Assembly (NCBI GenBank): GCA_030220185.1
Contig: JASPKZ010007250.1
Span: forward strand, 1,339,001 to 1,403,000
DNA from: Diploptera punctata
Lineage: Eukaryota > Arthropoda > Insecta > Blattodea > Blaberidae
Reading direction: 5' to 3'
Length of the DNA stretch: 64,000 nt
Numbering within the stretch: position 1 is the first letter of the stretch; each line of letters starts with the position of its first letter. A model generated the notes under the pieces. That model searched no databases, was not told the DNA's origin, and worked only from the letters and a program-made list of their open reading frames with translations. Below are positions 25,218 through 31,200 of this stretch, piece after piece. The position numbers and the translations under genes were made by a program.

Positions 25218-28200
25218 TTTATAATTCAATGTTATATGGTTGGTTGGTTGGTATCTAATGTCGAGCACTTGTTAATGAAATCATTCGCTCTCTTGCACTC
25301 CAATATTTAGCAGAAAGGCTGGTCTCTTCTACAAAAGCTGGACAACGGAGGAGATGGTTTCTTTCCATATCTTCATTTAAATTGCAAAAAGGGCATTTAG
25401 GTGAATCTGTTATGCCAAGTCTGTGTAGGTGTTTATTCAGGCAGTCATGTCCCGTTAGCAGCCTGAATATTGCTATTGCAGATTTTCTTTGTAATGTAGC
25501 AATGTCATAAGCTTGTAGATTTTCCCATTCCTTTCCAGATGTTTTGGTGGTGTATTTTCTTCTCTAAGTTTATTGATATATTTGAGATAATTCTTTTGAT
25601 AGAGTGAAAGGAAACTGGAGTAGAAGTTGGGTTTGAAACAATTTTGCTACCCTTCTAGGCCAGAAAATCGGCTATTTCATTGCCTGTCACTCCACAATGG
25701 GCCAGAATCCATTGAAATACAACTTTTTTATATAGACGGGAATACTGTTTTATCATTTTGTGACATTCGATAATTTTGATGCTTTTGGGTGTTGTGTCTC
25801 GTGTTATAGCAAGAATGGCTACTTTGGAGTCATATAGAATTACAACTTTTGTAAATTTTTGGATATGATATAAAAGATTTTGTAAACTTTAGAAAATTTC
25901 TAGAATTTCACCATCAAAGTTTGTTGAATTAGTGTTTAGTTTACGATAAAAGGAAAAAAGTGGGTATACTGCACCAGCACCAGTGCCACCGTCATTTGGT
26001 AGGCTGGAGCCATCTGTAAAAATGTGTATCCATTCAGGAGCAGGGTATCTTAGATTTATTATTTCCAGTGACATTTGTTTTAAAATATATGGGGGAGTTT
26101 CAGATTTCTTGATGTCTTCTGTTAAATGAAGGTTATATTCATTTTCCAAAAATTCTAGAGGATTGTTTCTCATGTGCATATTTTCTTTTGAATATGGAAG
26201 TTGCAATTTCTGTTTGATTTCTTGTACTATGCTTAAGAAGCTTTGCTGAGATTTTAAACATACTTGTGGTTTTCTTTGGGTCCAGTTATTATGGGGTAGC
26301 CTTACAAATGTTTCATACTGTGTGATTGCTGTTTCCTCAATTTCAAATGCCATGTTAGGGTTATATTGAATATATTATTGAAATTTGCACTGTCTTGTTG
26401 TTTACAGCTGAGGCTAGATTTCTTGGACTTCACTCTAGCTCAACCGGATGCAAATGGAAACTGTCTTGATGATAGTTTTGTGGTATCTGGAGGATCCTCT
26501 GTCGTGCCTGTGATATGTGGAGAAAATACAGGACAGCATGGTAAGTTTATTTCATTACTGACTTTTATTAGACTTGGATACCCAGATTATTGTTTTTTTT
26601 TATGACAATTATGAGTCAGTTTTCATGTAATTTAAATCAGAAAAGCATATATCATAATAACAGTATGTCTTGTTGTCGTAATTTATGGCATTTTATTTAT
26701 TTATTTTTTCAGTTTATGTTGATTTTGCATCTGATAGTTCACCGATTCTGATTACTGTAAGCACAAATCCTTCTGTATCAGCTAATCGCAAATGGAACAT
26801 CAAAATCACACAGATAGAGTGCTCTAATACAGAGAGAGGTAAGGATATTCATGGCTTCTATTTTTTCTTATGTGAATAAATATGAGTAAATTGCACTCTC
26901 TTTCACTTCTCTTCAAGCTTCTGAATTCCTACACTCCTAGTTACCTGGCATCCAGATTTGAAAAGTTATCTTCTTACCACAATATTGACACTAGGTCACA
27001 AGATAACACTTTGGTAACAATCCCTCTTTATAGTACTTCCTCTTATTCTACTTCCTTCACAGTAGCCTCTGCCTGCCCGCTTCTAGAATTTCCTTCCTCA
27101 AGATATCAGGGGTTGCTGCACACTTGGCACTTTTAAGTCACACTTATACAGTTACCTGTTGTCTAATAATTAATTTTTGTCTGTTTATTTAAATTTATAC
27201 TATGTCATTAATAATTTTTTCTCGTTTTTTTATATATCTTGTACATATTATATTTAATTTGTTAAATCTAGAGTAAATCAAAATACATTATAAATAATAA
27301 TTGTATTGTACTTATAACATGTAATCATTTAAGTTACGTAGGTAGGAAATAACACTATGAGGTTTATTTTAATTTATTTTGAGTTGTATTTTGACTCACC
27401 TCATATTTATTAATATGAGAAATATGAGCTGAGTCAAAATACAACTCAAAATAAAATAAAAATGTAATTATGTTTTTATTATTAATTTAACATTTCTCAA
27501 TGAAAGATAAATTAAATTTGAAGAGAAAAATTTTTCGCCTAGACCGGGACTCGAACCCGGGACCCTTGGCTTTCCGGGCCAAGTGCTCTACCAACTGAGC
27601 TACCGAGGCGAGTTACGATCTAGACGCAAATTTTTCTCTTATATACGTTGTTGTAATTCCCTATCGCCAAATGCTTTTGAAACCATTGTTTCTATCTTTG
27701 CAAATGGCGGCTTCTTAGTTAAGAAGACATTTATTGGAAATTTAACATTACTTTAAAAGCCAGTAAGGCCTCTAATGATGTTTTTATTATTAATTTAACA
27801 TTTCTCAATGAAAGATAAATTAAATTTGAAGAGAAAATTTTTCGCCTAGACCGGGACTCGAACCCGGGACCCTTGGCTTTCCGGGCCAAGTGCTCTACCA
27901 ACTGAGCTACCGAGGCGAGTTACGATCTAGACGCAAATTTTTCTCTTATATACGTTGTTGTAATTCCCTATCGCCAAATGCTTTTGAAACCATTGTTTCT
28001 ATCTTTGCAAATGGCGGCTTCTTAGTTAAGAAGACATTTATTGGAAATTTAACATTACTTTAAAAGCCAGTAAGGCCTCTAATGATGTTTTTATTATTAA
28101 TTTAACATTTCTCAATGAAAGATAAATTAAATTTGAAGAGAAAAATTTTTCGCCTAGACCGGGACTCGAACCCGGGACCCTTGGCTTTCCGGGCCAAGTG

Positions 28201-31200
28201 CTCTACCAACTGAGCTACCGAGGCGAGTTACGATCTAGACGCAAATTTTTCTCTTATATACGTTGTTGTAATTCCCTATCGCCAAATGCTTTTGAAACCA
28301 TTGTTTCTATCTTTGCAAATGGCGGCTTCTTAGTTAAGAAGACATTTATTGGAAATTTAACATTACTTTAAAAGCCAGTAAGGCCTCTAATGATGTTTTT
28401 TATTATTAATTTAACATTTCTCAATGAAAGATAAATTAAATTTGAAAGAGAAAAATTTTCGCCTAGACCGGGACTCGAACCCGGGACCCTTGGCTTTCCG
28501 GGCCAAGTGCTCTACCAACTGAGCTGCCGAGGCGAGTTACGATCTAGACGCAAATTTTTCTCTTATATACGTTGTTGTAATTCCCTATCGCCAAATGCTT
28601 TTGAAACCATTGTTTCTATCTTTGCAAATGGCGGCTTCTTAGTTAAGAAGACATTTATTGGAAATTTAACATTACTTTAAAAGCCAGTAAGGCCTCTAAT
28701 GATGTTTTTAAAGTAATGTTAAATTTCCAATAAATGTCTTCTTAACTAAGAAGCCGCCATTTGCAAAGATAGAAACAATGGTTTCAAAAGCATTTGGCGA
28801 TAGGGAATTACAACAACGTATATAAGAGAAAAATTTGCGTCTAGATCGTAACTCGCCTCGGTAGCTCAGTTGGTAGAGCACTTGGCCCGGAAAGCCAAGG
28901 GTCCCGGGTTCGAGTCCCGGTCTAGGCGAAAATTTTTCTCTTCAAATTTAAAAATGTAATTGTTTATGTTTATTGTAATTTAGATGTAAGACTATTTTTT
29001 TTTGTATTTTTTAAAGCCTGGTTGAGTGACAGACAAGGCCTTAAGGCCTGGTAAAATAACGCTATTATTATTATTATTATATTATTGTCCACTTCTGTGG
29101 TCTCGAGGTAGCGTGCTGCCTTGTCACGCAGTGGGCCCGGGTTTGATCCCCGGTTGGGGCAGTTTTTTTGGGTGAGGTTTTTATCGGGGTTTTTCCTCAC
29201 CTATAAGACAAATGTCTGGAAAACTTTAAGGCCCAAACGGTCCCCGAAATCATATGGCCATCATCATCATCACCATCATCATCCTTCACCGGTGTGGAAA
29301 GCAATGGGAAGCTACCACACGTACAATTCCCTAGTAAAGCATGAAAATGCTATGATTGCAGTGAAGGACCTGCCTTTGGGCAGAATTACTATGGATGGAT
29401 GGATTATATTATTATTATTAAGTCCATGTCAAATAATCAATACATACATTTCATAAAACTTACGATGGGAATTAACATCATGAAGCTTTCAAGTTAATTA
29501 AATTGAAATGAGTCATAGATCATCTCACCTCATAAACTCTGTTTTTTTCACAGCACAGAACCATGGTTTCAGCAGGAATAGTCATTCATATCTTCAGCCG
29601 TATTTTTGACTGTTGAATTTTTGTCAAAATGTTTTTAATTATCCAAATCATCACTTGCCACTTGTATTTTACTGTATTAACTTCATACACATGCCTGTCT
29701 GTTTAAATTTTCAGGTACCTGAGTTATGTCATCTACCACTCATGATGGAGAATTTAACCTACAGTAGTAACTGCGCATACATTGTCAGCAATGGGATATT
29801 TGTCTTCACTCTAAATAATTATATATGTTGTTCAGTTTAAAAATACATATTAATGGTGTGTGTTTTTATATACATTTCAGCTCCCTCAGGCTGTCTGATG
29901 TATTATTCAGCGATATCGGGGAAAGTGATGAGTTTCAATTATGCTTCTTCAGGTAGAGGAATAGGTAAGAAATCAGCATGCTTCTAAAAATGTTAAGTTC
30001 AATTTTCTGGATGGTTCTTAATTAATAATAATTAATGTAGAACAGAATCCATGTTTCAATCATACCTGGAAAGGTAAATCTTCAGATACAGGAAACTTCT
30101 GATGGTTTTAAATTATGGTTGGTTGGTATCTAATGTCGAGCACTTGATAATGAAATCATTCGCTCTCTTGCACTCCAATATTTAGCAGAAAGGCTGGTCC
30201 CTTCTACAAAAGCTGGACAACGGAGGAGATGGTTTCTTTCCATATCTTCATTTAAATTGCAAAAAGGGCATTTAGGTGAATCTGTTATGCCAAGTCTGTG
30301 TAGGCATTTATTCAGGCAGTCATGTCCCGTTAGCAGTCTGAATGTTGCTACTGCAGATTTTCTTTGTAATGTAGTAATGTCATAAGCTTGTAGATTTCCC
30401 ATTCCTTTCCAGATGTTTTGGTAGTGTATTCTTCTCTAAGTTTATTAATATATTTATTTGAGATAATTCTTTTGATAGAGTGAAAGGAAACTGGAGTAGA
30501 AGTTGGCTTTGAAACAATTTTGCTACCCTTTATTTAAATTATAAATCTATTAATAACCAATTGAGTTGGTGTTTACTTGATGAAAATCCATAAATCTATT
30601 AAAAATACAGGGTTATTCAGAAAGAAGGAACAGACTTCAAACATTTATTTCTTCCAAACTACGGAAAATAGAAACACAATTCCAACGTTCCTGGAAAGAG
30701 AAAAGTCCAAATTTCACTATTTTATGCATTCAATATGTTCACCACGTGTTACACGACAAATGTTTAAATGGTGGCTCATTTCTTGCCACATATGAATCAA
30801 CTGGTCTCTAGTTATCAAATTCACGGCTTCAACAATTCGATATTACAGATTTTCAAGAGTGTCAGGCATAGGGGGGATAAAAACATGGTCTTTTACATAT
30901 CCTCACAGATAAAAATCACAGGCGGCTAGGTCTGGTGACCTGGGAGGCCATCGGCGATGAATTTGATCTTCTGCTCGTCCTCTCCAATCCAACGTCCTGT
31001 TGTGTCGTCATTTTAATACAAACAATCAACATAACAAGCAACAGCGCCAATGCGGCCATGATCAGAACTTCAAACTTTTCTCTTTCCAGGAACATTGGAA
31101 TTGTGTTTCTATTTTTTGTAGTTTGGAAAAAATAAATGTTTGAATTCTGTTCCTTCTTTTTGAATAGTCCTGTATGTGTCTTGTACAATACATTGTCAAG

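What the first reader, a model, noticed from the sequence alone, without database searches (positions are those of the whole stretch)
27470..28949. tRNA-like cloverleaf amplified in a tandem-plus-inverted array with target duplication
Four direct and one inverted unit of about 307 bp, each with a tRNA-like fold, sit between perfect 12-bp duplications (AAAAATGTAATT). Neither SINE retroposition nor satellite growth predicts an inverted terminal unit plus a target duplication. PLEs and the small circular-RNA 'retrozymes' thought to use PLE machinery do show tandem units, and PLEs in this same window show tail-to-tail inversions. This suggests a non-autonomous element mobilised by PLEs that carries a tRNA-like domain, possibly excised as monomers by RNase P and tRNase Z where retrozymes use hammerheads. 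The mechanism is inference.
Basis: partly seen in the sequence, partly recalled or inferred. Interest (0 to 1): 0.88.

Follow-up and report, generated by a model that had tools for sequence, protein, structure and literature searches.

The report
tRNA-like repeat mobilised by Penelope elements
A short repeat carrying a tRNA-shaped RNA fold has spread through its host genome as small head-to-head arrays whose ends look like insertions made by Penelope retrotransposons, which suggests that it is a parasite of their copying machinery.

Summary
At 27470-28951 there are four direct units (307-309 bp) and one partial inverted unit (246 bp), between 13-bp duplications TAAAAATGTAATT. Each unit holds a strong tRNA match (Rfam 48-54 bits).

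It is not a local oddity. Two searches of the host genome (3.12 Gb) scored 40 candidate places each, out of 758 and 878 candidates, in two young subfamilies. Of 35 inverted arrays whose two ends I could read, 30 have a direct repeat of 8 bp or more (mode 12), and 29 of those 30 have exactly one end with a ~42-nt "tail" and one without. Six arrays of the second subfamily agree, 6 of 6. Penelope-like elements (PLEs) in the same DNA show the same signature: seven clean pairs of 14 examined, 12-16 bp repeats, 36-48 nt tail difference. A published PLE enzyme extends both cut strands and starts at two internal RNA sites, which define that tail.

Best reading: a non-coding, non-autonomous tandem element copied by PLE enzymes. 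It resembles metazoan retrozymes, with a covarying tRNA-like domain and no hammerhead found. Nothing shows excision by RNase P or tRNase Z. A circular or multimeric RNA template is inferred, not shown.

The parts
27457..27469 (+). left target-site duplication TAAAAATGTAATT
   Evidence: exact repeat, (D6); recurs as a class
27470..27511 (-). 42-nt 'tail' at the left outer end (unit positions 1-42)
   Evidence: present at exactly one end in 29 of 30 inverted arrays with a direct repeat of 8 bp or more
27470..27777 (-). direct unit 1 (tRNA sense is the minus strand)
27778..28084 (-). direct unit 2
28085..28392 (-). direct unit 3
28393..28701 (-). direct unit 4
28702..28710 (-). stub of a fifth direct unit and inversion junction, microhomology TTTTA
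28706..28951 (+). inverted partial unit, ends without tail
   Evidence: (I1)
28949..28961 (+). right target-site duplication TAAAAATGTAATT
27536..27609 (-). tRNA-like domain, unit 1
   Evidence: RF00005 54.2 bits
27843..27916 (-). tRNA-like domain, unit 2
   Evidence: RF00005 54.2 bits
28151..28224 (-). tRNA-like domain, unit 3
   Evidence: RF00005 54.2 bits
28460..28533 (-). tRNA-like domain, unit 4
   Evidence: RF00005 48 bits
28855..28928 (+). tRNA-like domain, inverted unit
   Evidence: RF00005 54.2 bits
32595..33078 (.). diverged composite A of the same family with its duplications GCTTTTCTAAAT (32595-32606, 33067-33078), inside a PLE copy
   Evidence: PLE copies at 728-1038 and about 53428-53742 lack the insertion (read by eye)
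51452..51620 (.). diverged composite C, duplications GAGGTTTATA (51452-51461, 51611-51620)
   Evidence: duplication read by eye
8274..8469 (+). single diverged copy B
49716..49804 (+). single diverged copy D
31318..31520 (-). single diverged copy E
21015..22160 (.). PLE head-to-head pair (GIY-YIG fragments, hammerhead-like cores), repeat AATAAATGTCAA, 45-nt tail difference: the comparison element
10582..11162 (.). PLE head-to-head pair, tail difference 48 nt
40278..41313 (.). PLE head-to-head pair, tail difference 46 nt

Best explanation
The unit is a non-coding, non-autonomous retroelement of about 305 nt that uses the enzymes of resident PLEs. A transcript that runs past one unit (a multimer, or a circle) is bound by a PLE protein. 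The protein makes a staggered cut in AT-rich DNA and extends both cut strands with cDNA, starting at one of two RNA sites 42 nt apart downstream of the tRNA-like domain. Each strand can run through several units. The two cDNAs point towards each other and are joined where they can pair, or where synthesis stops at the tRNA-like hairpin. The result is a head-to-head array with a ~12-bp duplication and a tail at one end only. Shown here: family, architecture, duplications, one-tail rule, the same signature in local PLEs, covarying RNA fold. Inferred: the use of PLE enzymes, the form of the template, the function of the tRNA-like domain.
For: Flank repeats: 32 of 40 arrays share 8 bp or more, against 4.6% of 2000 mismatched flank pairs. 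One-tail rule: 29 of 30 inverted arrays with such a repeat (6e-8 if the two tail states were mixed half the time), plus 6 of 6 in a second subfamily. PLE pairs: of 14 hammerhead pairs examined, seven have 12-16 bp repeats and tail differences of 36-48 nt. PMC11167929 (abstract and nearly all of the main text): a PLE protein cuts and extends both strands, starts at two internal sites that define the tail, and prefers AT-rich targets; our duplications are 82% A+T (27 arrays). Bases beyond the tail end match the next unit in 14 of the 16 junctions that have any, of 27, which suggests that the template continues past that point. Junction microhomology of 4 bp or more: 12 of 38 against 2.4% expected. 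Private variants sit in all units of an array (7) or in one (98), rarely between (3). In L019 a PLE pair and a unit array carry the same 12-bp target, ATCAGTATATAT. RNA fold: 11 pairs with changes on both sides in cloverleaf plus flanking stems, 8 of them in the cloverleaf; shuffles mean 4.6 for the whole.
Against: A profile of PLE 3' ends does not recognise the unit (best 1.1 bits, shuffles up to 10.5), so no shared 3' sequence explains recognition. No specific partner PLE was identified. No expression data. One array (L014) has no end without tail and only an 8-bp match; L022 (old copy), L025 and L047 (flank masked) have no duplication, while L004 and L044 failed the script but show 11-12 bp by eye. 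Seven arrays away from an edge have one orientation only; three of them have 10-13 bp repeats (L017, L022, L028). The eighth PLE pair with a match of 12 or more (window 45746) has a 72-nt difference, and 15% of mismatched PLE flanks reach 11 bp. One fold measure, the number of pair types, does not exceed shuffles. Eight chosen stretches away from the finding (20 kb) held no copy.
Confidence: 0.84

Rival explanations
1. The unit is the pseudo-LTR of an autonomous PLE family whose coding copies I have not seen; the arrays are coding-less remnants of it.
For: Tail, duplications and inverted arms are described for PLE pLTRs (PMC3846280, passages). GIY-YIG candidates are abundant (45,022, of which 150 scored). 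Unit pieces lie in 17 of the 30 PLE loci fetched.
Against: The 30 inverted arrays closed by a direct repeat consist of unit sequence with no gap above 40 bp, so they have no room for a coding region. This test is limited: my 40-bp gap rule would split a coding copy into two arrays without repeat, and most stretches reach only about 1.5 kb out. In the 30 PLE loci the only long sense match just downstream of GIY-YIG is L072 1952-2013, a 62-nt insert with its own 12-bp repeat inside a PLE 3' end (by eye). No hammerhead core in the young unit while local PLEs have one; no 3'-end similarity.
Confidence: 0.1
2. A tRNA-derived SINE mobilised by a LINE, with inversions from twin priming and tandems from recombination.
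For: A-box and B-box motifs are present in most units examined (22 and 21 of 25).
Against: The tRNA lies at the 3' side of the unit, and a T-run of 4 or more follows the B box by 16-17 nt (21 of 21 with a B box), so a Pol III transcript should stop before either insertion end. No poly-A or simple-repeat end in the ends printed. Fixed two-site tail with the one-tail rule.
Confidence: 0.04
3. Satellite growth, fold-back DNA transposon or assembly artefact.
For: Inverted terminal unit plus tandem units.
Against: Dozens of separate loci with different duplications and arm lengths; PLE paralogues show the empty site for composite A; both arms start at the same two positions while the inner junction varies.
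Confidence: 0.02

Closest known systems
Penelope-like elements with pLTR and tail (PMC3846280, passages; PMC11167929, abstract and nearly all of the main text)
   Same: inverted copies, partial tandems, optional 30-40 nt tail at one of the inverted ends, short duplications, AT-rich targets
   Different: no coding region, no hammerhead found, no detectable 3' sequence similarity
Metazoan non-LTR retrozymes (PMC7229834, PMC7761336, passages)
   Same: non-coding tandem units of 170-400 nt, highly self-paired RNA (z = -6.1 for one unit), co-existence with PLEs, duplications longer than 4 bp
   Different: hammerhead not found; a tRNA-like domain is present; circular RNA not tested
Helenus, TRIMs with a tRNA-like sequence in the LTR (PMC10886601, abstract and outline)
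   Same: a tRNA-like sequence carried inside a non-autonomous retroelement's terminal repeat
   Different: Helenus has LTRs, PBS, PPT and 4-5 bp duplications; here ~12 bp and PLE-type ends
tRNA-derived SINEs (recalled)
   Same: tRNA-like sequence with A and B boxes
   Different: tRNA at the 3' side, terminator-like T-run directly after it, tandem and inverted arms, two-site tail

Membership tests
Penelope-like element (autonomous) | reverse transcriptase plus GIY-YIG coding region | tested here: not met
   two unit frames of 81 and 77 aa give no Pfam family; no sense frame of 70 aa or more in the finding's array
Penelope-like element (autonomous) | tail at one of two inverted 3' ends, short duplication | tested here: met
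   29 of 30, 6 of 6
Penelope-like element (autonomous) | hammerhead motif in the pLTR | tested here: not met
   no CTGANGA on either strand of the young majority unit; Rfam lists no hammerhead in L019 1501-2300 at E up to 3; the second subfamily was only covered by the core scan
Metazoan retrozyme | type I hammerhead ribozyme | tested here: not met
Metazoan retrozyme | non-coding tandem units of about 170-400 nt with duplications longer than 4 bp | tested here: met
Metazoan retrozyme | expressed as circular RNA | not testable with these tools
   no RNA data
tRNA-derived SINE | tRNA at the 5' end as Pol III promoter for the whole transcript | tested here: not met
   T-run 16-17 nt after the B box in 21 of 21 units with a B box; insertion ends lie further downstream
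tRNA-derived SINE | poly-A or simple-repeat 3' end | tested here: not met
   ends abut the duplication in the flanks printed
Helenus (TRIM with tRNA) | 4-5 bp target-site duplication | tested here: not met
   mode 12 bp
Functional tRNA-Ser (ARAGORN label) | U33 and long variable arm | tested here: not met
   loop CCGGAAA in the young subfamily, short variable loop; rule recalled

The most novel reading that the evidence does not exclude
The tRNA-like domain does in this element what the hammerhead is thought to do in retrozymes: tRNA-processing enzymes cut a multimeric transcript at its 3' edge, the monomer is ligated into a circle, and PLE reverse transcriptase copies the circle by rolling-circle synthesis on both strands. 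The same 3' half of the tRNA can also pair with an upstream strand (two of the eight pairs of that helix change on both sides), so the RNA would switch between a processable cloverleaf and a rod-like circle.
Probability: 0.17. Interest if true: 0.88.

Novelty: new variant of a known kind. Interest (0 to 1): 0.73.

Why it matters
Who mobilises animal retrozymes is open; PLEs are called a strong candidate on co-occurrence, tandem copies and shared hammerheads (PMC7229834, passages). Here a small non-coding repeat carries the PLE insertion signature directly, across dozens of loci and two subfamilies, with no hammerhead found. If the reading is right, PLE enzymes can be used in trans by RNAs that share no 3' sequence with them, and self-cleavage is not required; PMC11167929 reports that hammerhead mutants still insert in vitro. 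The family also gives many recent insertion products from which the PLE joining steps can be read. tRNA finders would count such units as tRNA genes, as ARAGORN does here.

Tried and rejected
SINE model: rejected. Hammerhead in the unit: searched, not found. Shared 3' sequence with PLEs: it looked present by eye, but a profile test was negative. Unit as pLTR of a sampled PLE: not seen in 30 loci. L025, an array that abuts a PLE tail, was tested for one shared insertion: no shared flank of more than 8 bases found. 5' truncation points of PLEs at the hammerhead cut site: inconclusive, because some query copies were themselves truncated. Relatives elsewhere: a family-specific tRNA pattern had no exact match in viral or prokaryote contigs, which is uninformative for animals. 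Density: the window holds the finding plus five other clear pieces in 64 kb; eight stretches of 2.5 kb chosen by round coordinates hold none, so I give no copy number beyond 758 and 878 first-look candidates (only 40 scored each, and the two may overlap). The helix that competes with the cloverleaf covaries in 2 of its 8 pairs; I do not choose between the two folds. Junction positions rest on exact 14-mer anchors and can be off by some bases. In one search arrays under 140 bp and matches under 90% identity beside better ones were left out.
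Full report
WHAT IS THERE. The array at 27470-28951 has four direct units and one partial inverted unit between 13-bp duplications. The tRNA folds pass Rfam's gathering score in all five. In tRNA sense each unit reads: an upstream hairpin region, the tRNA-like domain, a short trailer, then a 42-nt tail. Unit positions below count in the antisense (plus-strand) direction, so position 1 is the tail end, 43 the end without tail, and about 66-141 the tRNA.

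A FAMILY. Five more clear pieces lie in the window: two head-to-head composites (32607-33066 with GCTTTTCTAAAT on both sides, and about 51462-51610) and three single, truncated copies. The first composite sits in a PLE copy; related PLE copies at 728-1038 and about 53428-53742 run through the site without it (read by eye). The host genome was searched once with the unit (758 first-look candidates, 40 scored) and once with a second subfamily about 79% identical to the first (878 candidates, 40 scored). Most matches listed are 97-100% identical to their query, so both subfamilies have young copies; the lists show the best matches only.

ENDS. I mapped the units in 39 further genome stretches plus three window pieces. 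One search took 55 arrays of 140 bp or more; 13 touch an edge of the stretch; of the other 42, 35 have both orientations and 7 have one. Of the 35, 30 have a direct repeat of 8 bp or more at the ends (mode 12), and in 29 of the 30 one end is at the tail position and the other at 40-52. The exception, L014, has only an 8-bp match. The five without a repeat are L004, L022 (old copy), L025, L044 and L047; L004 and L044 show 12 and 11 bp by eye, and the right flank of L047 is masked. The arms run antisense then sense, so tRNA 3' ends point outward; L009 and L041 hold two abutting insertions. For the second subfamily I read both ends of six of the nine two-strand loci visible in the cut listing: 6 of 6 have 11-12 bp repeats and one tail; the inner part was fetched only for L088. 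A flank control gives 8 bp or more in 4.6% of 2000 mismatched pairs, against 32 of 40 (narrower windows). At the tail end 16 of 27 arrays have 1-4 extra bases, and in 14 of the 16 these continue the sequence of the next unit. Ten of the sixteen are a single base, so this is suggestive rather than strict proof of a template that runs on.

JUNCTIONS. In 38 inversion junctions microhomology of 4 bp or more occurs in 12 (2.4% expected) and of 8 bp or more in 5 (0.07% expected). Of 76 junction sides, 33 fall at positions 55-67, the 3' edge of the tRNA-like domain and the A5T5 palindrome (3.2 expected); in 17 junctions only one side lies there, which palindrome pairing alone does not explain. An insert of about 62 nt in L072, inside a PLE 3' end and flanked by a 12-bp repeat, also runs from the tail end to that edge and stops (by eye).

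TEMPLATE. Among 128 full units the mean difference is 0.47% within arrays (same orientation), 1.29% between direct and inverted units of one array, and 0.83% between arrays. The direct-inverted figure runs against a simple one-template story, but one array (L035) drives it: without it the three figures are 0.45%, 0.62% and 0.74%. Private variants are found in all eligible units of an array (7, of which 3 in both orientations) or in one unit (98), rarely in some (3) (indels at positions 50-70 left out). The finding's own array has a private GTT in all five units. I read this as favouring one homogeneous template per insertion, a circle or repeated use of a monomer, but a transcript of a homogeneous array would do as well.

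THE PLE LINK. GIY-YIG pieces at 21130-21609 and 36950-37534 pass Pfam's cut-off, and the genome gives 45,022 first-look candidates, 150 scored. Hammerhead-like cores mark PLE 3' ends. Of 14 inverted core pairs examined, eight have a match of 12 bp or more; seven of these (L019, L024, L068, one in L077, and the window pairs at 10690, 21161 and 40422) have left-right distance differences of 36-48 nt, that is, one tail, and the eighth (window 45746) has 72. L012 is a further one by eye, 14 bp with one mismatch. The rest are different families, decayed or without repeat (control: 15% of mismatched pairs reach 11 bp, so single cases are weak). In L019 the PLE pair and the unit array carry the same 12-bp target, so the site was probably used twice. 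PMC11167929 (abstract and nearly all of the main text) gives the biochemical basis; PMC3846280 (passages) describes the optional tail on one of two inverted pLTRs. A profile of PLE 3' ends does not match the unit.

RNA. On 25 units chosen by me to span subfamilies, the cloverleaf with its flanking stems and upstream hairpin has 95.4% paired cells and 11 pairs with changes on both sides, 8 of them in the cloverleaf (shuffles mean 4.6, none of 500 as high); the number of pair types is no higher than in shuffles, and one acceptor pair is broken in 10 of 25 rows. A competing helix between the 3' half of the tRNA and an upstream strand also covaries, in 2 of its 8 pairs, and it forms in the minimum-energy fold of one young unit (-92.5 kcal/mol, z = -6.1). 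These counts are not probabilities, because related rows repeat inherited changes. A and B boxes are found in 22 and 21 of 25 rows, and a T-run follows in 21 of 21 with a B box.

VERDICT. A PLE-dependent, non-autonomous, retrozyme-like element with a tRNA-like domain and no hammerhead found. I saw no description of such an element in six library searches (listings only, of which 43 and 70 showed 15 of 31 and 15 of 33 papers); most subscription papers are not in that library.

Noticed in passing
window 4760-4792, 5957, 10654, 11006, 21125, 22059, 29559, 40389, 41215, 45711, 45779, 46694, 48855, 53641: Hammerhead-like cores (CTGANGA..GAAAC..GTH), many on PLE 3' ends; Rfam's hammerhead models report none of them at gathering score or at E up to 5. 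A stricter pattern had 2 matches against 0.06 expected; the wider one had no control. The core at 4760-4792 has a perfect five-pair stem II by eye.
   Followed up: partly
L019 600-2840: A PLE head-to-head pair and a tRNA-unit array lie side by side with three copies of the same 12-bp target ATCAGTATATAT.
   Followed up: partly
L072 1952-2013: A 62-nt piece of unit, from the tail end to the tRNA 3' edge, inserted in a PLE 3' end with a 12-bp repeat (by eye).
   Followed up: partly
L025 3070 and L079: A unit array whose right end directly abuts the 3' tail end of a PLE, with no duplication found between or around them.
   Followed up: partly
window 29088-29399, 32010-32320, 57862-58175, 60380-60701: A dispersed repeat of about 310 bp that starts with a B-box-like stretch; looks like an ordinary tRNA-derived SINE, though Rfam reports no tRNA in the first copy.
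   Followed up: no
window 27367-27461: A near-perfect palindrome (two 42-nt arms) directly left of the array; the array's left duplication overlaps its end.
   Followed up: no
C8181, C6874, C6849, C4087:2505447, C2323, C7:2454909, C3786:2004450: Seven second-subfamily loci with near-identical unit boundaries and scores, possibly copies of one larger duplicated segment.
   Followed up: no
window 48169-48441, 56760-57089, 63553-63780: Exons that look like prostaglandin E synthase 2 (glutaredoxin and GST domains) and a class I tRNA synthetase, pointing to an animal host (gene names recalled).
   Followed up: no
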